Below, piece after piece: positions 54,480 to 61,286 of a stretch of 64,000 nt of DNA (positions within the stretch are counted from its first letter, which is position 1; every line of letters starts with the position of its first letter). The position numbers and the translations under genes were made by a program. Where the stretch lies: contig CP099605.1 of NCBI GenBank assembly GCA_024372625.1, positions 2,046,001-2,110,000 on the forward strand, in the 5' to 3' direction. The notes beneath the pieces are model-generated. The model worked only from the letters and a program-made list of their open reading frames with translations, was not told where the DNA came from and did not search any database. The stretch is from Comamonadaceae bacterium OTU4NAUVB1 (lineage in GTDB: Bacteria > Pseudomonadota > Gammaproteobacteria > Burkholderiales > Burkholderiaceae_C).

Positions 54480-54741
54480 AAGTTCCGCATGAACACCTCG
54501 TCGACACGCCCCGGGAACCGCGCTTTCCCGTTGGCCGTGCTTCGCCTCAGTGGGTGACCGGTCGCGTCGTCGTGCTGTAGGGATTTCACCCGTCCCGGTG
54601 CGGTCCCCGGTTCACGAGGGGCCGCCGGCGGCTGTCGCCGCCTGGCTTCCAGGCCTACGCGCGGGCCCGGTCGGCGCCTGGATATTGCGAACGATCCGCA
54701 TCGCGGCGGTGCCCGGTCGCCGCCACAGCCAACCGACACGC
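54446..54741 (-). ncRNA. candidate structured small RNA
   Basis: The gap between the MDR dehydrogenase and patatin genes is about 330 bases with no recognisable protein. The minus strand ends in a strong intrinsic terminator with U7. Upstream on that strand several compact hairpins are readable: CCTGG-aag-CCAGG, GGCGGC-gaca-GCCGCC, CCCC..GGGG around TCGTGAACC, and CGGGAA..TTCCCG. The sequences GUUCGCA and UGCGGAAC could also pair across the whole region. It does not carry the signatures of RNase P RNA, tmRNA or SRP RNA, and 6S RNA could not be confirmed. The 5' end is not defined. Confidence 0.35.
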
Positions 54742-55737
54742 ATGACCACGAAACTCAACCTCGCCCTGCAGGGGGGCGGCGCCCACGGCGCCTTCACCTG
54801 GGGGGTGCTCGACCGCCTCCTGGAAACGCCCGGCATCGACATCCGGCGCATCAGCGGCACCAGCGCCGGGGCCCTGAACGCCGCCGCGCTGGCCACCGGC
54901 CATGCCCATGGCGGCCCCGAAGGCGCCAAGGCCAACCTCGCCCGGCTCTGGCAGCGCGTGGCCACGGTGGGACTGCCCTTCACCATGCTGTTGCTGCCGC
55001 TGCGCAAGCCGGGCTGGGGCATCTGGGACGACGCGATCCCCCTGGTGTCGCCTTACATGGCCAATCCGCTGGGCATGGGGCCGCTGCGCTTCGTCCTCGA
55101 CGAGGTCATCGACATCGAGGCCCTGCGCAGCGCCAGCGCGCCGGCGGTCCACGTGAACGCCATCGGCGTCAACAGCGGCCGCCACCGCGTCTTCGGCCCC
55201 GACGAGCTGTCGATCGACGCCCTGCTGGCCTCGGCCTGCGCGCCGATGGTGTTCCAGGCGGTGCAGATCGGCGACGAGGCCTACTGGGACGGCAGCTACG
55301 CCGCCAATCCCGCGCTGCGGCCGCTGTACGAGGGCGAGACCGACGCGGACGTGCTGATGGTCGAGCTGACGCCGCTCGCGCGCGCGGAGACGCCCATGAC
55401 GGCGAAGAACATCCTCAACCGCATCAACGAGCTCGCCTCGACCCAGGGCCTGCTGGCCGAGATGAAGGACCTCGCCGCCTACAACACGCGCCGGGGCCAC
55501 GACATCCGCATGCACGTGCTGAGCCTGCCGGACGCGTCGTCGGGGCTGGAGACGGAGCCCTCGATCAAGCGCAGCGTCGGCATGGAGCTGTTCGAGTCGC
55601 TGCGGCGCAAGGGACGCGCCACCTGCGAATCGTGGCTCCAGGCGCACCACCGGTCGCTCGGCGTCGCCGCGTCGATCGACATCGAGGCGCACTACCTGTC
55701 GAGCCTCGATCACCACCAGCACGCGAGGTCCGCATGA
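54742..55737 (+). CDS. patatin-like phospholipase
   Basis: A 331-residue patatin-family acyl hydrolase. The oxyanion motif is ALQGGGAHGAFTWG near residue 8, the nucleophile Ser41 is in ISGTSAGALNAAAL, and the catalytic Asp183 is in YWDGSYAANPALRPL. No signal peptide is seen, so it is probably cytoplasmic unless secreted by a specialised route. The stop overlaps the start of the OBAP lipoprotein gene (ATGA), coupling the two. Confidence 0.92.
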   Translation: MTTKLNLALQGGGAHGAFTWGVLDRLLETPGIDIRRISGTSAGALNAAALATGHAHGGPEGAKANLARLWQRVATVGLPFTMLLLPLRKPGWGIWDDAIPLVSPYMANPLGMGPLRFVLDEVIDIEALRSASAPAVHVNAIGVNSGRHRVFGPDELSIDALLASACAPMVFQAVQIGDEAYWDGSYAANPALRPLYEGETDADVLMVELTPLARAETPMTAKNILNRINELASTQGLLAEMKDLAAYNTRRGHDIRMHVLSLPDASSGLETEPSIKRSVGMELFESLRRKGRATCESWLQAHHRSLGVAASIDIEAHYLSSLDHHQHARSA

Positions 55738-56636
55738 ACGCCCCACGCCATCCCCGTGCGCGCCCGCGCCTGTCGCATCTGTCGCGCCCGTCGCCTGCAT
55801 CGCTCCTGCCGGCGCTGGTCCTGGCGGTGTGTGTCGCCGGCTGCGACGGTGGCGGCTCGGCCTCCAACGTGCGGGTGCCGGGTGCCGAGACCTCGCCCAC
55901 GACGAAGGCGCTGGACGCCGGCGCCGCCGCGCTCCAGAACCGGGCGCCGATCGAGGCCATCAACGCCTACCTCGACGGCTTCCACTTCTACGCGGGCCGC
56001 ATGGAGGAACAGATGGAGGCCCACCACTACTGCGCCATCCTCAACGAGGACGTGATCCAGTGCGTCATCTACGACGGCAACGTCAAGGACGCCAAGCTGA
56101 TGGGCGTGGAGTACATCGTCACCGAGCGCCTCTTCAAGGACCTGCCCGATGCCGAGAAGGCGCTCTGGCACAGCCACGTCCACGAGGTGAAGTCCGGGCA
56201 GCTCGTCGCGCCGGGCATTCCCCAGGTCGCCGAGAACGAACTGATGAAGAAGCTCGTCGGGACCTATGGCAAGACCTGGCACACGTGGCACACCGACCGG
56301 CAGAAGACGCTGCCGCTGGGCGTGCCGCAACTCATGATGGGATTCACCGCCGACGGCCAGGTGCACGCAGACATGGTGGAGGCCCGCGATCGGCGCATGG
56401 GCATCCGCAGCGCGGACAAGAAGCAGGAACGCGAGTCCATCGCGGCCCCCGCCATCGCCCCGGGCGCCGACGCCTGGAAGAACGGTGGCGCCGTGCAGCT
56501 CCAGGATCCGACCGGACAGGAGCACCATGGCCAGGGGAGTCCGGGCGCTCAGGGTCATCGCGACGGTCAGGCCGTTCAAGCCGGTACTGCCGGTAATGCC
56601 GCTCAGGGCGGTCACGCCGGGCACGGCGGGAAGTGA
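55734..56636 (+). CDS. OBAP family (DUF1264) lipoprotein
   Basis: A 300-residue protein of the oil-body-associated protein family. The core includes EAINAYLDGFHFYAGRMEEQMEAHHYC, QCVIYDGN and LWHSHVHEVKSGQLVAPG. Unlike plant members it begins with an arginine-rich lipoprotein signal, lipobox VAGC, with lipidated Cys37. The C-terminal 45 residues are rich in Gly, Gln, Ala and His (GQEHHGQG, GGHAGHGGK). It is translationally coupled to the patatin-like phospholipase, suggesting a shared lipid-related role. Biochemical function in bacteria is unknown. Confidence 0.87.
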   Translation: MNAPRHPRARPRLSHLSRPSPASLLPALVLAVCVAGCDGGGSASNVRVPGAETSPTTKALDAGAAALQNRAPIEAINAYLDGFHFYAGRMEEQMEAHHYCAILNEDVIQCVIYDGNVKDAKLMGVEYIVTERLFKDLPDAEKALWHSHVHEVKSGQLVAPGIPQVAENELMKKLVGTYGKTWHTWHTDRQKTLPLGVPQLMMGFTADGQVHADMVEARDRRMGIRSADKKQERESIAAPAIAPGADAWKNGGAVQLQDPTGQEHHGQGSPGAQGHRDGQAVQAGTAGNAAQGGHAGHGGK

Positions 56637-57086: not shown

Positions 57087-58355
57087 ATGACCGAACGCAT
57101 CCCTTACGCCAGGAAAGAATTCAAAGGCAATTTCTCGATTCATCAGGAATGGAGGATCTTCGATGGCCCGCAGGGTTGCACGCCCTTGGCCATCGATGGC
57201 TTCGGTCTGCGGATGGACCGGCTTCCCCCGCCCCTGCCGGTTTCCGTGCCCCCGCCCGATCCGACGATGGCGCCGCCGAGTCACTCCGAGCATCCGGCGC
57301 ACGTCGAAGCATCGAAGGGATTCAAGGGTTGGCTGGAAAAAGCCGCAGCCAGACCCGCGCCACCCTCCACGCCCGAAAAAGGTCCCGTATTGGTCGAGGC
57401 CTTCAAGGAGATCAAGGAATGGGTGAATGCGTCCAACGCGAACGACAAGCCGAAGGCGCAACCGTTCGACATGCTGGACATTCCTCAGGGAATGGCGGCG
57501 ATGGGCTTTTCAAAGGGAAGGATCCTTGCGGAGCGCTGGTTCAACGGACGGGCGTTCTTTGGGCCGACGAAGGCAGAAGAATTGAATGGAGCTATTTATC
57601 CAGAAGATATGATCGACAACAAAACGATCAAAACCTCTTGGTTACTCGGTTTCAAAGATATGGAAGAAAAATACGATGACTTGGAAAAAATCCTGATCTA
57701 TTCACCAGCCGCAAGAAAAATTGCCAAAAAATGTCTCGCAGGATTCATTTTAAACAATCCTAGATTTAATGGGACTTTGCTCACGAAACAGTACTGCAAT
57801 GGAGATATACAAAAACTGCATCATCAATTTCAATTTCAAAGAAACATGATTACCGATCTGGATACACTGAAGAATCTTGCACCCACCGATTTGACGGCAT
57901 CACTTGGAAGTTTTAGTTTTCTTGCCGCAATTGCAAGCGCAGATATAGCGACAAAGGTCTACAACAGATACATATCTCCTTCAAACACACTTCACTGCAC
58001 TCAATCAACAGCCACAATAACTCATATATGGATTTATGCGAAGGACAGCTATTCTTTTCAAGACGACGACAACACATCGCAATATCTTGGCCACTGGAAT
58101 AAAAGCGGCCTGATTGTCCTGCCGGCAGCAGCAGCCACCGCAAAAATAGGCAATCTTTTGAAAAATTATACGAAGCTTGGAAGAAAACTCAGCTTTGAGG
58201 CTGGCGACGCAGACATCGTGTCAATCCGACCGACTCTAGAGATACGCCGACTGATGGAAACAGAAATTTATACCTCGATAAGAAACAAAAATTATATTGA
58301 TTGGAGAAAGAAGCACAACCGCGGAGGAGACTTCGTCATCTATTCAGACCTTTAA
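57087..58355 (+). CDS. DUF6402-type protein, candidate effector-associated gene
   Basis: A 422-residue protein that resembles the DUF6402 family by eye: FDMLDIPQGMAAMGFSKGRILAERWFNG from about residue 130, IDNKTIKTSWLLGF, the segment QFQFQRNMIT, DLTASLGSFSF and WIYAKDSYSFQDDDN...YLGHWNKSGLIVLP. No signal peptide or membrane helix is evident. The first 110 residues are a proline-rich linker with two similar amphipathic segments (VEASKGFKGWLEKA and VEAFKEIKEWVNAS). Codons up to about 57560 are GC-rich; after that the gene is strongly AT-rich. The start is the ATG at 57087 (MTERIPYARKEF); 57018 is an alternative. Four small paralogous genes follow. Function unknown; an effector or toxin role is inference from layout. 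Confidence 0.7.
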   Translation: MTERIPYARKEFKGNFSIHQEWRIFDGPQGCTPLAIDGFGLRMDRLPPPLPVSVPPPDPTMAPPSHSEHPAHVEASKGFKGWLEKAAARPAPPSTPEKGPVLVEAFKEIKEWVNASNANDKPKAQPFDMLDIPQGMAAMGFSKGRILAERWFNGRAFFGPTKAEELNGAIYPEDMIDNKTIKTSWLLGFKDMEEKYDDLEKILIYSPAARKIAKKCLAGFILNNPRFNGTLLTKQYCNGDIQKLHHQFQFQRNMITDLDTLKNLAPTDLTASLGSFSFLAAIASADIATKVYNRYISPSNTLHCTQSTATITHIWIYAKDSYSFQDDDNTSQYLGHWNKSGLIVLPAAAATAKIGNLLKNYTKLGRKLSFEAGDADIVSIRPTLEIRRLMETEIYTSIRNKNYIDWRKKHNRGGDFVIYSDL

Positions 58356-58399
58356 AAAATAGAACTTGACGAACCCATTTCGATCTCCTTGGACGAAAT

Positions 58400-58837
58400 A
58401 TGCATTTGAACTTTTTCTTTAGATATAAATTATCAGCAATACTAGTTGTTATTGCTTGCATGGCCGCGCTGTGTTATTTATTTATTCCGATAGACTACAA
58501 ATATAGCCAATGCAAAGAATGTACAAAGAGATTTCAAGGCGGAGTCCGCTATTTTCACGGCATTGAGTATTACCTAGAAGTGTGCAATGTCGGGTCCTTT
58601 GAAAATGCAAACTTCATGATTTTGAAAGTCTTCGATGCAGAAAGAAAACTCTTGGCTCGCAAAGCATTCACCGACGATTCGCACATCCCCTTTCCAATGG
58701 AGTTTGAATTTTCGGATGATGGATTTACATACTTCACCTCAAAGGACCTGAGAACCTATGACTTCGATGAGTTGTTTGTCTCCTTTCCACCCACACAGTG
58801 GGACAAGTTCAAAGCCAATTACACGAATTTGGATTGA
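58400..58837 (+). CDS. membrane-anchored paralogue, copy 1 (intact), immunity-like
   Basis: A 145-residue protein. One hydrophobic segment (LSAILVVIACMAALCYLF, residues about 10-28) serves as a signal anchor. The core has QCKECTKRFQGGVRYFHG and YYLEVCNVGSFENANFMILKVFD, with conserved cysteines, then a C-terminal segment ending PPTQWDKFKANYTNLD. It starts 44 bases after the DUF6402 stop, and an upstream element (GAACTTGAC..TTGGACGAAATATG) recurs before copies 2 and 3. Its 3' flank also resembles that of copy 4. The family was not named with certainty. The tandem array beside a DUF6402 gene suggests an immunity or partner role. Confidence 0.75.
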   Translation: MHLNFFFRYKLSAILVVIACMAALCYLFIPIDYKYSQCKECTKRFQGGVRYFHGIEYYLEVCNVGSFENANFMILKVFDAERKLLARKAFTDDSHIPFPMEFEFSDDGFTYFTSKDLRTYDFDELFVSFPPTQWDKFKANYTNLD

Positions 58838-59072
58838 ACGTCTCTTGTCAGGAAGATCGCGCCCGACGTGAAATTTGCGAGTGAGATGTCGATCACGCTC
58901 GATCACCTGCAAATTGAATGAACCGACAGAAAGAGAACTAAATACATCCATAAGAAATAAATAATCATGTTGAATGGCGCAGCAAGCAAGATCTGGACGG
59001 TTATTTGGTTATTTATTCTTATTTGAAAAGAATCGAACTCGATACTTAAATTCACGTTCAGTTGGACGAAAC

Positions 59073-59506
59073 ATGTCGCTGAAATTGGCCTTGATCATCA
59101 AGATGGTGATCTTCTTTCCTATTCTCAACGGCGTGCTGTCTTTCTTTTTTACCTCTAAGAAGTTTGAGCCCGTTCAGTACGAAGCACATACAAAACAATG
59201 CAAAGGCGGAAAGCATGTTTTCAAGGGCACCGAGTACTTCATGGAAGCGTGCACCATGGGCTCATAAGACGTTCAAGAATTCTTGCTTTTCAGAGTTTTG
59301 ATTGTCGAAAAGAAAATCTTTTGATTTGAAGAGAATTCAGCATCAATCTTTATATCTACATGCCGTTTAAAATCAAGATCTCGGAAAACGGGTTCAGCCG
59401 TTTCAATTCTCCGGATTTCACCACCGTGGAATTCGAGGAGATATTTATCGAAATGCCACCCACATGGCGGGATCAATTCCAAGCCAATCACACGAGCCTG
59501 AACTGA
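59073..59506 (+). pseudogene. paralogue copy 2, broken
   Basis: By alignment with copies 1 and 3 the gene starts MSLKLALIIKMVIFF and reads to CTMGS, where TAA (59265-59267) stands in place of a conserved tyrosine or phenylalanine codon. About 50 bases later one base is missing relative to copy 4, changing the frame, and TGA at 59327-59329 interrupts the restored frame. After that the frame still encodes the family C-terminus (MPPTWRDQFQANHTSLN) up to the TGA at 59504-59506. A 35-base run from the internal TGA is identical to copy 4. Upstream, ATG at 58967 opens an unrelated 19-codon hydrophobic frame. Confidence 0.8.
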
Positions 59507-59734
59507 TCTGCCATGATCGGGTTGACTCAAGGATAAAGCAGGAAAATTTATGTTTGGTGAATCAATCATTGCAAACCAGAGTTTGCTTTCGAAGTCGCCC
59601 TGACGCCGGCGGTGACAACGGAACTGATTGGTTCGTGAGAATTTTTCTCGAGTGGAGGCTTTTGGTAACATTGCTCTTTGAATTTCTACAAAAGTTGAAC
59701 TCGACCGCCCGATCCACCTCGATTTGGAAGAAGC

Positions 59735-60166
59735 ATGTTTTTGAAATCTTCATCTTTTCTCAAATTGGCAATCTTCTTTTCTGCATTTTTTATGCTGGTG
59801 TCTCTTTTATTTCCCCAAAATCTGAAACCTAGAAAATGTCAAGAATACACCAAGGAATTCAGTGGGGGAAATCATTCTTTCAAAGGAATTGATTATTTCA
59901 TAGAAATTTGCAACATAGGAATGTACGAAAACGCGGATTTTTTGCTTCTCAGCGTTTACGACTCAAACAGAAATGATCTTTTGGTTCAGAGAAAATTCAA
60001 CGACAATTTGTATGCCCAATCCATCTTTAAAATCAAATTTTTTGACAATGGATTCAAATACTACAACGCTTCAGACCTCACCAAAGTTCAATATGATGAA
60101 ATATTCGTCGAGGTTCCACCGAATTGGTGGGAAAAGTTCAAAGCGAATCACATGAATCCAAATTGA
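59735..60166 (+). CDS. membrane-anchored paralogue, copy 3 (intact), immunity-like
   Basis: A 143-residue intact member. The hydrophobic anchor (LKLAIFFSAFFMLVSLLF) spans about residues 9-26; the core has KCQEYTKEFSGGNHSFKG and YFIEICNIGMYENADFLLLSVYD, and the C-terminus PPNWWEKFKANHMNPN. The position equivalent to the shared stop of copies 2 and 4 encodes LLVQRKF here, showing the ancestral reading. The GAACTCGACC..TTGGAAGAAGCATG element precedes it, as in the other copies. Confidence 0.75.
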   Translation: MFLKSSSFLKLAIFFSAFFMLVSLLFPQNLKPRKCQEYTKEFSGGNHSFKGIDYFIEICNIGMYENADFLLLSVYDSNRNDLLVQRKFNDNLYAQSIFKIKFFDNGFKYYNASDLTKVQYDEIFVEVPPNWWEKFKANHMNPN

Positions 60167-60503
60167 ACCATCAAGATTGACTTTTTGAGGATCGGGGCTG
60201 GATTGAAGTGTCACATTATTTTTTCATCAAGACACGAATGGACTGGCGATCCCGCTCGTCGTGCAGAAAAATTTGAATTCTGCAAGGCGGCATGAAGCAA
60301 GAGTTAGTTTAAAGATGGCATCAAGAAACATTTTTCTTTTCGAACTTTTGCAAAGATGCAGCGATTGAAAAACAGGTATCTGCACCACCAGCAAAAACTA
60401 CGCCAAATGCCTCAAAGAGTATGACGGGTGCAGAAATCCAGTCATTTATTTCAATCTGGAGATAATATGGCTTGACAATCCAATTGATGCCGAATCGAGA
60501 ACA
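60167..60503. other. AT-rich spacer between copies 3 and 4
   Basis: No full gene. The frame 60313-60465 is open for 50 codons after a TAA and reads KDAAIEKQVSAPPAKTTPN then MTGAEIQSFISIWR before TAA. It has no obvious start and may be a remnant of another small gene. An alternative overlapping frame reads NYAKCLKEYDGCRNP. Neither is claimed as a gene. Confidence 0.4.
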
Positions 60504-60941
60504 ATGTAATTGAAATTTTCACCATTTACTAAAAAAGCAACGGTCCTGCTTTTCTTGCTCTACGGGCTGCTGCCGTTCTTTTTCAACTATATAAAATCTG
60601 AGCCCGATCGATGCGAAGAATATACAAAGAAATACAATGGTGGAAAGCATTCTTTCAAGGGCTCTGAGTATTTTATAGAAGTGTGCAACATGGGCACATA
60701 TGAAAATCAAAAATTCTTGATCTTCAGAATCTTCGATTTTCAGAAACAAAATCTTTTGATCTGAAGAGAATTCAGCATCAATCTTTATATCTACATTTCG
60801 TTCGAAATCAAGATCTTCAAAAACGGTTTCAGCTATTTCGATTCTTCGGATTTCACCACTGCGCAGTTCGAAGAAATATTTGTCGAAATGCCACCCACAT
60901 GGTGGGACAAGTTCGAAGCCAATCACACGAATCTGGATTCA
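60504..60941 (+). pseudogene. paralogue copy 4, broken
   Basis: The homologous ATG at 60504 is followed at once by TAA; the frame then reads LKFSPFTKKATVLLFLLYGLLPFFF (partly) and CEEYTKKYNGGKHSFKG, YFIEVCNMGTYENQKFLIFRIFD, up to TGA at 60762-60764, the same stop as in copy 2. Past it, the same frame gives REFSINLYIYISFEIK and the family C-terminus MPPTWWDKFEANHTNLD. The expected final TGA has become TCA, so the frame runs on. A TTG at 60510 could start an 84-codon truncated product. At least three separate lesions mark it as a pseudogene. Confidence 0.8.
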
Positions 60942-61286
60942 ATGCTTTTTGTCAGCGGAATCGCGTCCGATTCGATCGCGCGAGCGATGTCCCGGCAGCG
61001 GTGCACAGACGACAGGATCGATGCGGTGTCCAACGCCGCCGGACACCGCGGCCTGCCACATCCCGCCACCCTGGGAGGCACGTCGAGCCGCTGGCCGACG
61101 ATGCGCAGTCCCGCCGGAGCGACGGCAGCGTTCGGGGCGATTGGCGAGTCCGGCACCGGCCTCGCGCTGGGGACTGCGGTCTTCAGCCAGGGATCGTGCC
61201 GGCGCAGTCGCCAAGTACGGTCGTGGCGGGTCTTGGCACGACGTGACGTGACGTGACGTCCGATGCGGCTGCGGCTGCGCGAGAAC
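60942..61286. other. 345-base region between island and exopolysaccharide genes
   Basis: GC-rich, with several overlapping short frames on both strands, none recognisable. Its first 40 bases still resemble the 3' flank of copy 1. At 61241-61259 there is a short tandem repeat of ACGTG units. Confidence 0.45.
61241..61259. repeat. short tandem repeat (ACGTG)n
   Basis: About four units of the 5-base motif ACGTG in a row, just downstream of the stop of the glycosyltransferase gene, which reads in from the right. Confidence 0.7.

What the first reader, a model, noticed from the sequence alone, without database searches (positions are those of the whole stretch)
57087..60960. AT-rich DUF6402 gene followed by a tandem array of four membrane-anchored paralogues
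Seen: one DUF6402-like gene and four related small genes in one direction, all far more AT-rich than the rest of the window; each small protein has one N-terminal hydrophobic segment, conserved cysteines and a C-terminal PP-x-x-W/QW-D motif. Known: effector or toxin genes are often followed by duplicated immunity genes of foreign composition. Inference: the array could be a set of immunity or partner proteins acting at the membrane or in the periplasm, with DUF6402 as the effector or its adaptor. No such function is established here.
Basis: partly seen in the sequence, partly recalled or inferred. Interest (0 to 1): 0.78.

Follow-up and report, generated by a model that had tools for sequence, protein, structure and literature searches.

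The report
Toxin gene with layered immunity array
An AT-rich island holds a gene that looks like an injected antibacterial toxin (DUF6402) followed by four copies of its likely antidote gene, two intact and two decayed, apparently left by repeated toxin swapping or antidote duplication; the toxin's predicted shape matched no solved structure and no paper in the library searched names its family.

Summary
The DUF6402 gene (57087-58355) and the small membrane-anchored family downstream are real, but only copies 1 and 3 are intact; copies 2 and 4 carry stop codons. DUF6402 and the small gene form a conserved module: the small gene starts within 400 nt downstream in 81 of 82 loci with room, and in 349 order-level genomes all 7 genomes with the small family also carry DUF6402. 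Delivery evidence comes from relatives: one ORF fuses PAAR to DUF6402; in four other genomes a PAAR gene directly precedes DUF6402, two of them 2.6 kb from TssB. Best reading: DUF6402 is a type VI secretion effector without a PDB fold match, and the small protein is its inner-membrane-anchored, periplasm-facing immunity protein. Small-gene arrays with detached DUF6402 3' tails occur in relatives, and tail-like sequence precedes window copies 2 (strong), 4 (fair) and 3 (weak); this fits published sequential effector displacement, with tandem duplication contributing. No TssB, TssC or TssF was found in the window's genome, so the effector may have no delivery machine there. Toxicity, secretion and protection are inferred, not shown.

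The parts
57087..58355 (+). DUF6402 protein, 422 aa, proposed antibacterial effector; stop TAA 58353-58355
   Evidence: PF19940 E 1e-64; genome match 2103465-2104388 passes one TAA
57096..57242 (+). N-terminal PYY/GC/PP module (about 45 aa) before a Pro-rich linker; found only on DUF6402 genes in the sample
   Evidence: A5 alignment; 9 of 9 hits with E<1e-5 in 399 genomes lie at DUF6402 genes
57465..58349 (+). DUF6402 domain, confident AlphaFold2 model, no PDB match at E<=0.001
58356..58399 (+). sequence after the stop codon that resembles the C-terminal tail of relatives; runs into the start of copy 1
   Evidence: weak tail-profile match E 0.018; DNA alignment
58400..58837 (+). small membrane-anchored protein copy 1, intact, 145 aa, proposed immunity protein
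   Evidence: AlphaFold2 model: helix 3-26 then six strands, pLDDT 88
58952..59071 (+). DUF6402 3'-end remnant directly upstream of copy 2
   Evidence: Smith-Waterman score 77.5, 0 of 2000 shuffles as high; tail-profile match E 0.004
59073..59506 (+). small protein copy 2, broken (TAA 59265-59267, then a frame change and a TGA)
59617..59732 (+). weak DUF6402 3'-end remnant upstream of copy 3
   Evidence: score 36.5, 20 of 2000 shuffles as high; tail-profile match E 0.021
59735..60166 (+). small membrane-anchored protein copy 3, intact, 143 aa
60390..60485 (+). probable DUF6402 3'-end remnant upstream of copy 4
   Evidence: score 46.5, 3 of 2000 shuffles as high; tail-profile match only E 0.34
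60510..60950 (+). small protein copy 4, broken (TGA 60762-60764; no stop at the usual end)

Best explanation
DUF6402 is a family of antibacterial effectors delivered by a type VI (PAAR-tipped contractile) secretion system: a short N-terminal module or a PAAR protein loads the protein, and the DUF6402 domain is the toxin. The small downstream protein is its cognate immunity protein, held in the inner membrane by an N-terminal helix with a disulfide-type beta domain in the periplasm, so the toxin most likely acts in the periplasm or on the inner membrane or cell wall of the target. The four-copy array is a layered immunity locus: older immunity genes pushed downstream when incoming effector-immunity cassettes replaced the effector, plus tandem duplication, with two copies now decayed. 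Shown: conserved pairing, PAAR fusion and adjacency in relatives, 3' effector remnants, orphan copies matching other strains' cognates. Inferred: secretion, toxicity, site of action, protection.
For: Pairing: small gene within 400 nt downstream in 81 of 82 loci with room (37 of the 45 profile rows come from these loci); the commonest spacing is a 4-base overlap, 32 of 84 picks. Co-occurrence 7 of 7 in 349 genomes. Delivery: PAAR (E 1e-17) and DUF6402 (E 3e-24) in one 383-aa ORF, L020; PAAR proteins (E 1e-14 to 1e-19) directly upstream in L014, L015, L016, L018; in L014 a TssC C-terminal domain (VipB_2, 1.6e-45) and a gp25/TssE-type protein (3.2e-17) precede PAAR; TssB 2.6 kb away on the same strand in G404 (L014) and G513 (L018); VgrG 4.2 kb away on plasmid pINT23; a Peptidase_M23-DUF6402 fusion, L089. 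Covariation: Mantel r 0.749 over 76 pairs (largest of 500 permutations 0.095), higher for DUF6402 positions 101-250 (0.752) than for the N-terminal module (0.387). Arrays: 14 of 84 loci have two or three copies (some partial), four with detached DUF6402 tails between copies; L102 copy 2 is 28% identical to its own first copy but 72% to the first copy of L096, and that DNA match starts 55 bases inside the L096 DUF6402 gene. Published model: Kirchberger et al. 2017, PMC5361080 (passages seen).
Against: No hit for TssC, TssF or TssB in the window's genome; G441 and G434 also carry DUF6402 without a TssB hit. VgrG is rarely near: two VgrG queries found one VgrG (L028) among 109 loci, 69 of them 15 kb or longer (the query does detect the window genome's two VgrGs). 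No toxin activity, catalytic motif or known fold is recognised. No Pfam family matches more than 1 of 45 small proteins at E 0.01. Several extra copies resemble their own first copy (L057 91%, L035 80-82%, L094 copy 2 81%, L080 75-88%), so tandem duplication explains part of the arrays without displacement, and a match that starts inside DUF6402 does not by itself tell the two apart. Window copy 3 has no close cognate elsewhere (best 26%). The small-family search scored at most 11 first-look candidates per genome, so independent occurrences could have been missed.
Confidence: 0.78

Rival explanations
1. DUF6402 is a T6SS adaptor or structural tip protein rather than the toxin, and the small protein is a membrane partner of the apparatus.
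For: Adjacency to PAAR; the best BFVD match is a 668-aa phage 'Tail protein' (E 5e-9); a fusion to Peptidase_M23, which could be the real toxin.
Against: There is no room for an effector gene between DUF6402 and the small gene in 81 of 82 loci; the pair sits on two plasmids with no VgrG listed within 8 kb; an adaptor would not be expected to need a diverging, duplicated membrane-anchored partner (inference).
Confidence: 0.1
2. The pair is a prophage- or plasmid-borne moron with another purpose, such as superinfection exclusion, plasmid surface exclusion or abortive infection, not an injected toxin with immunity.
For: Five viral contigs carry DUF6402; phage baseplate, tail-fibre, endolysin or integrase genes lie beside it in the four checked, L113, L114, L115 and L117; 22 Burkholderia and Caballeronia records of the plasmid collection, some of them megaplasmids, carry it.
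Against: PAAR-DUF6402 fusion and a copy inside a T6SS cluster; no PADLOC family match at E<=1 for five proteins; no tblastn match of P0001 in 50,697 phage records.
Confidence: 0.08
3. The array is only tandem gene amplification for immunity dosage; the tail-like sequences are simply the ribosome-binding leader duplicated with each copy.
For: Some extra copies are closest to their own first copy (L057, L094, L080); window copies 2 and 4 share a stop codon and 79% identity.
Against: L102 copy 2 and L086 copy 2 match other strains' first copies far better than their own (72% against 28%, 68% against 46%).
Confidence: 0.3

Closest known systems
T6SS effector-immunity modules and immunity gene arrays of Vibrio cholerae (Kirchberger et al. 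2017, PMC5361080; passages seen)
   Same: One effector followed by several immunity homologues; older immunity genes shifted downstream; orphan copies similar to cognates of other strains; effector 3' end shifted back with an older unit
   Different: Different protein families (recalled); most loci here have no VgrG within the stretch held; no TssB, TssC or TssF found in the window's genome
DUF6402 (PF19940)
   Same: Window protein is a member above the cut-off
   Different: The family has no stated function; no paper in the library names it
Colicin M with its membrane-anchored periplasmic immunity protein Cmi (recalled, not fetched)
   Same: Recalled layout: periplasm-acting toxin and immunity protein with one N-terminal anchor and a disulfide
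   Different: No match of the DUF6402 model reaches E 0.001 in the PDB and none of the 50 shown of 92 weak matches is a colicin M
PAAR-fused specialised T6SS effectors
   Same: L020 is a PAAR-DUF6402 fusion in one ORF
   Different: No PAAR was found in the window protein; its N-terminal module is specific to DUF6402 in the sample

Membership tests
DUF6402 (PF19940) | Profile score above the curated cut-off over the domain | tested here: met
   218.9 bits against 26.4, profile positions 1-264 of 278
T6SS cargo effector | Physical link to PAAR, VgrG or T6SS core genes | tested here: inconclusive
   Met in some relatives (L020 fusion; L014, L015, L016, L018 PAAR-adjacent; L014 beside TssC and TssE-type genes; G404 and G513 near TssB); not met at the window locus, nearest PAAR 10.7 kb downstream
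T6SS cargo effector | Host encodes a T6SS | tested here: not met
   No TssC, TssF or TssB in G000, which is 98.8% complete; TssB present in 8 of the 11 DUF6402 genomes among the 12 searched
T6SS cargo effector | Secretion and toxicity | not testable with these tools
   needs bench work
Cognate immunity protein | Adjacent, covarying gene found with the effector | tested here: met
   81 of 82 loci; 7 of 7 genomes; Mantel r 0.749. Exceptions: G471:C2:786590 (small gene without a DUF6402 place), L076 (DUF6402 without small gene), and G671, G763, G706, G586 (DUF6402 without small-family hit)
Cognate immunity protein | Binds and neutralises the toxin | not testable with these tools
   no complex prediction was on offer; no bench data
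Immunity array by effector displacement | Effector 3' remnants before the downstream immunity copies | tested here: met
   L035, L078, L080, L094; DNA matches starting 17 to 136 bases inside the other strain's DUF6402 in L102, L086, L050, L035, L078; window copy 2 strong, copies 4 and 3 weaker
Immunity array by effector displacement | Orphan copies resemble cognates of other strains | tested here: inconclusive
   Met for L102 and L086 copy 2; not met for window copy 3 (best 26%)
Colicin M-like toxin | Colicin M fold | tested here: not met
   no PDB match at E<=0.001 for the DUF6402 model; 50 of 92 weak matches were shown; that colicin M entries are in the library was not checked

The most novel reading that the evidence does not exclude
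DUF6402 is a new-fold periplasm-acting T6SS toxin superfamily carried as AT-rich cassettes on chromosomes, plasmids and prophages, and in a host that has lost its T6SS the array persists as a stand-alone acquired defence: immunity genes 1 and 3 kept intact against T6SS-armed kin while the effector, the other immunity copies and the delivery machine decay.
Probability: 0.3. Interest if true: 0.72.

Novelty: new member of a known kind. Interest (0 to 1): 0.55.

Why it matters
A family of unknown function gains a testable role: an antibacterial effector whose predicted fold matched no solved structure, with a defined partner. The array and its effector remnants give a readable record of toxin replacement, and a host without a detected T6SS offers a natural test of whether orphan immunity genes are kept for defence alone.

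Tried and rejected
General T6SS marker: the N-terminal module was searched in 399 order-level genomes (at most 18 candidates scored per genome); all 9 hits with E<1e-5 are at DUF6402 genes, the other 21 places listed have E 0.003-0.05. A tblastn of the module on plasmids gave 19 records: 17 Burkholderia, of which 15 are annotated DUF6402 under the match, LR890526 has no annotation but carries the DUF6402 match, and one place in B. arboris, read in L154, is an N-terminal piece joined to a DUF6402 C-terminal piece beside a small-gene relic; the other two are Agrobacterium hits at E 10. Anti-phage system: no PADLOC match. Phage families: only one weak match to copy 1 (E 0.055). Known toxin by sequence or fold: none. 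Weak Pfam matches below the cut-off (VATC 0.013 for copy 1, GIT_CC 0.07 for DUF6402) and two Pfam matches each hitting one of 45 small proteins were taken as chance. VgrG neighbourhood: only L028. A PAAR profile iteration drifted onto DUF6402 through the fusion L020 and was discarded; the plain phmmer and the Pfam scans replaced it. The picks contain mis-picks (L028, L082, L020, L018 and others); the profile-based count replaced them. Duplicate loci: L012, L017 and L011 carry the same DUF6402 as L033, L073 and L069 and were left out of the counts, which used L033-L117 without L070. The GC count did include L070.
Full report
What is there. Window 57087-58355 encodes a 422-aa DUF6402 protein. 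It is followed on the same strand by four copies of a small family: copy 1 (58400-58837) and copy 3 (59735-60166) are open; copies 2 and 4 are interrupted by stop codons. GC is 39.5% over 58356-60960 against 71.2% for the window outside the island. In the DUF6402 gene, third-position GC falls from 0.72-0.75 (residues 1-150) to 0.33-0.50 (steps from residue 151 on), so this copy looks chimeric. Only 12 of 69 relatives have an N-terminal part more than 0.1 above the rest, so this is not a general family trait. Low GC is one: in 84 of 84 loci with enough flank (the window's and the genome's second locus among them, and one near-duplicate) the unit has lower GC than its flanks (mean 52.4% against 65.8%, 83 of them by more than 5 points).

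The pair is a module. The same genome has a second DUF6402 gene overlapping a small gene by four bases. A scan of named bacterial genomes with a 14-row DUF6402 alignment kept the best 80 of 107 relatives, and one of viral contigs gave 5. Of 84 loci (one duplicate dropped), 82 have more than 400 nt downstream and 81 of these have the small family there; the exception is L076. The small-family profile has 45 rows, 37 of them from these loci, so this count is partly circular. In an order-level draw it found 7 of 349 genomes; DUF6402 was found in 11 of 349, apparently the same draw, 10 over the cut-off; the 7 are all among the 11. At most 11 candidates per genome were scored for the small family, so 7 is a lower bound. 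Fifteen of the 16 small-family places lie within about 2.2 kb downstream of a DUF6402 place on the same strand; G471:C2:786590 stands alone. G671, G763, G706 and G586 (below cut-off) have DUF6402 without a profile hit; in G671 a 121-aa ORF with one hydrophobic segment overlaps DUF6402 by four bases all the same, while in G763 I saw no such ORF.

Anatomy of the small protein. Over 45 members C38, Y57, C62, P130, P131 and A139 (copy 1 numbering) are nearly or fully invariant. The AlphaFold2 model of copy 1 (pLDDT 88, pTM 0.76) is one helix (3-26) followed by six strands. Several relatives have up to three hydrophobic segments. With basic residues before the helix and two conserved cysteines, the domain most likely faces the periplasm (inference). 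No Pfam family matches more than one of the 45; no solved structure matches convincingly by sequence (best E 0.2) or fold (best E 0.1).

Anatomy of DUF6402. The model has pLDDT 84.6 and pTM 0.80 with a low-confidence linker. No PDB match reaches E 0.001. One predicted viral protein does, a 668-aa protein named 'Tail protein' (E 5e-9), which I could not fetch. Near-invariant polar residues (D268, Y317, D320, Q332, N400, D415) suggest an enzyme, unproven. An N-terminal module of about 45 aa precedes a proline-rich linker; in 399 genomes its 9 significant hits are all at DUF6402 genes.

Delivery. In L020 one ORF holds PAAR (E 1e-17) and DUF6402 (E 3e-24). In L014, L015, L016 and L018 a PAAR gene (E 1e-14 to 1e-19) directly precedes DUF6402. 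In L014 the order is TssC C-terminal domain (VipB_2, 1.6e-45), a gp25/TssE-type protein (3.2e-17), PAAR, DUF6402, small gene. TssB lies about 2.6 kb from DUF6402 on the same strand in G404 (L014) and G513 (L018). One Comamonadaceae protein fuses Peptidase_M23 to DUF6402. These are marks of a T6SS effector. Against this, VgrG was found in one of 109 loci, 69 of them 15 kb or longer, and the window's own genome has no TssC, TssF or TssB hit although it has two VgrG-like and four PAAR matches. A congener, G122, has two TssB genes, so loss of the machine in the window's lineage is the simplest reading. Three of the 11 DUF6402 genomes tested lack TssB.

How the array arose. Fourteen of 84 loci have two or three small-gene copies, some partial; in L035, L078, L080 and L094 detached DUF6402 C-terminal pieces lie between copies. 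In L102 the second copy is 28% identical to the first but 72% to the first copy of L096, whose DUF6402 is only 47% identical, and the DNA match starts 55 bases inside the L096 DUF6402 gene. L086 copy 2 is similar (46% against 68% to L082), its match starting 17 bases inside; L050, L035 and L078 start 66 to 136 bases inside. This is what Kirchberger et al. 2017 describe (PMC5361080, passages seen): a new effector-immunity cassette displaces the effector and shifts the old immunity gene downstream. Some extra copies are closest to their own first copy, so tandem duplication contributes. In the window, sequence like the DUF6402 3' end lies upstream of copies 2, 3 and 4, ending 1, 2 and 24 bases before their start codons: strong for copy 2 (0 of 2000 shuffles), fair for copy 4 (3 of 2000), weak for copy 3 (20 of 2000). 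Copies 2 and 4 share a stop codon, so at least one later duplication or conversion involved a broken copy (inference).

Cognate pairing. Over 76 loci the identity matrices of DUF6402 and of the first small protein correlate (Mantel r 0.749; largest of 500 permutations 0.095), more for DUF6402 positions 101-250 (0.752) and 250-405 (0.674) than for the N-terminal module (0.387). Shared ancestry of the hosts contributes to this number and was not removed.

Mobility. DUF6402 is on 22 records of the plasmid collection, Burkholderia and Caballeronia, some of them megaplasmids, and on five viral contigs; in the four whose neighbours I scanned, baseplate, tail-fibre, endolysin or integrase genes lie beside it. 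The window's genome belongs with Xenophilus (Comamonadaceae): G071, listed as same family, has a DUF6402 ORF identical to that of Xenophilus sp. E41 (L011 and L069).

Verdict. Two searches of the open library found no paper naming DUF6402 or PF19940; papers outside that library were not searched.

Noticed in passing
L128:8596-9168 (G000:C3, about 10.7 kb downstream of the array, outside the window): A stand-alone PAAR-like gene (27.0 bits, 25.2 bits, cut-off 27) among genes that read by eye as flagellar; it might be a tip for an effector in trans.
   Followed up: partly
L126:6871-7962 (G000:C3:1346871-1347962): Another pair of lower GC in the same genome: a PAAR protein followed by a protein with a weak Lnb_N periplasmic-domain match.
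   Followed up: partly
L124:7238-11798 and L125:8470-12435: Two VgrG genes followed by a lipase-like (PGAP1) gene and a DUF2515 gene, in a genome with no TssB, TssC or TssF hit.
   Followed up: partly
L089:7485-9266: Peptidase_M23 fused to DUF6402 in a Comamonadaceae bacterium.
   Followed up: partly
L029:6612-6914 and L032:7123-7422: H-NS family genes next to DUF6402 on two Burkholderia plasmids, perhaps silencers of the AT-rich cassette.
   Followed up: no
L032:11116-11484: A tlde1-domain gene close to the DUF6402 pair on a Burkholderia aenigmatica plasmid.
   Followed up: no
L134:2137-3371: A transposase (rve and HTH_21 domains) between DUF6402 and the small gene in G696.
   Followed up: partly
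54550-56636: Upstream of the island: a patatin-like protein and a lipoprotein-like gene, by eye ordinary chromosomal genes.
   Followed up: no
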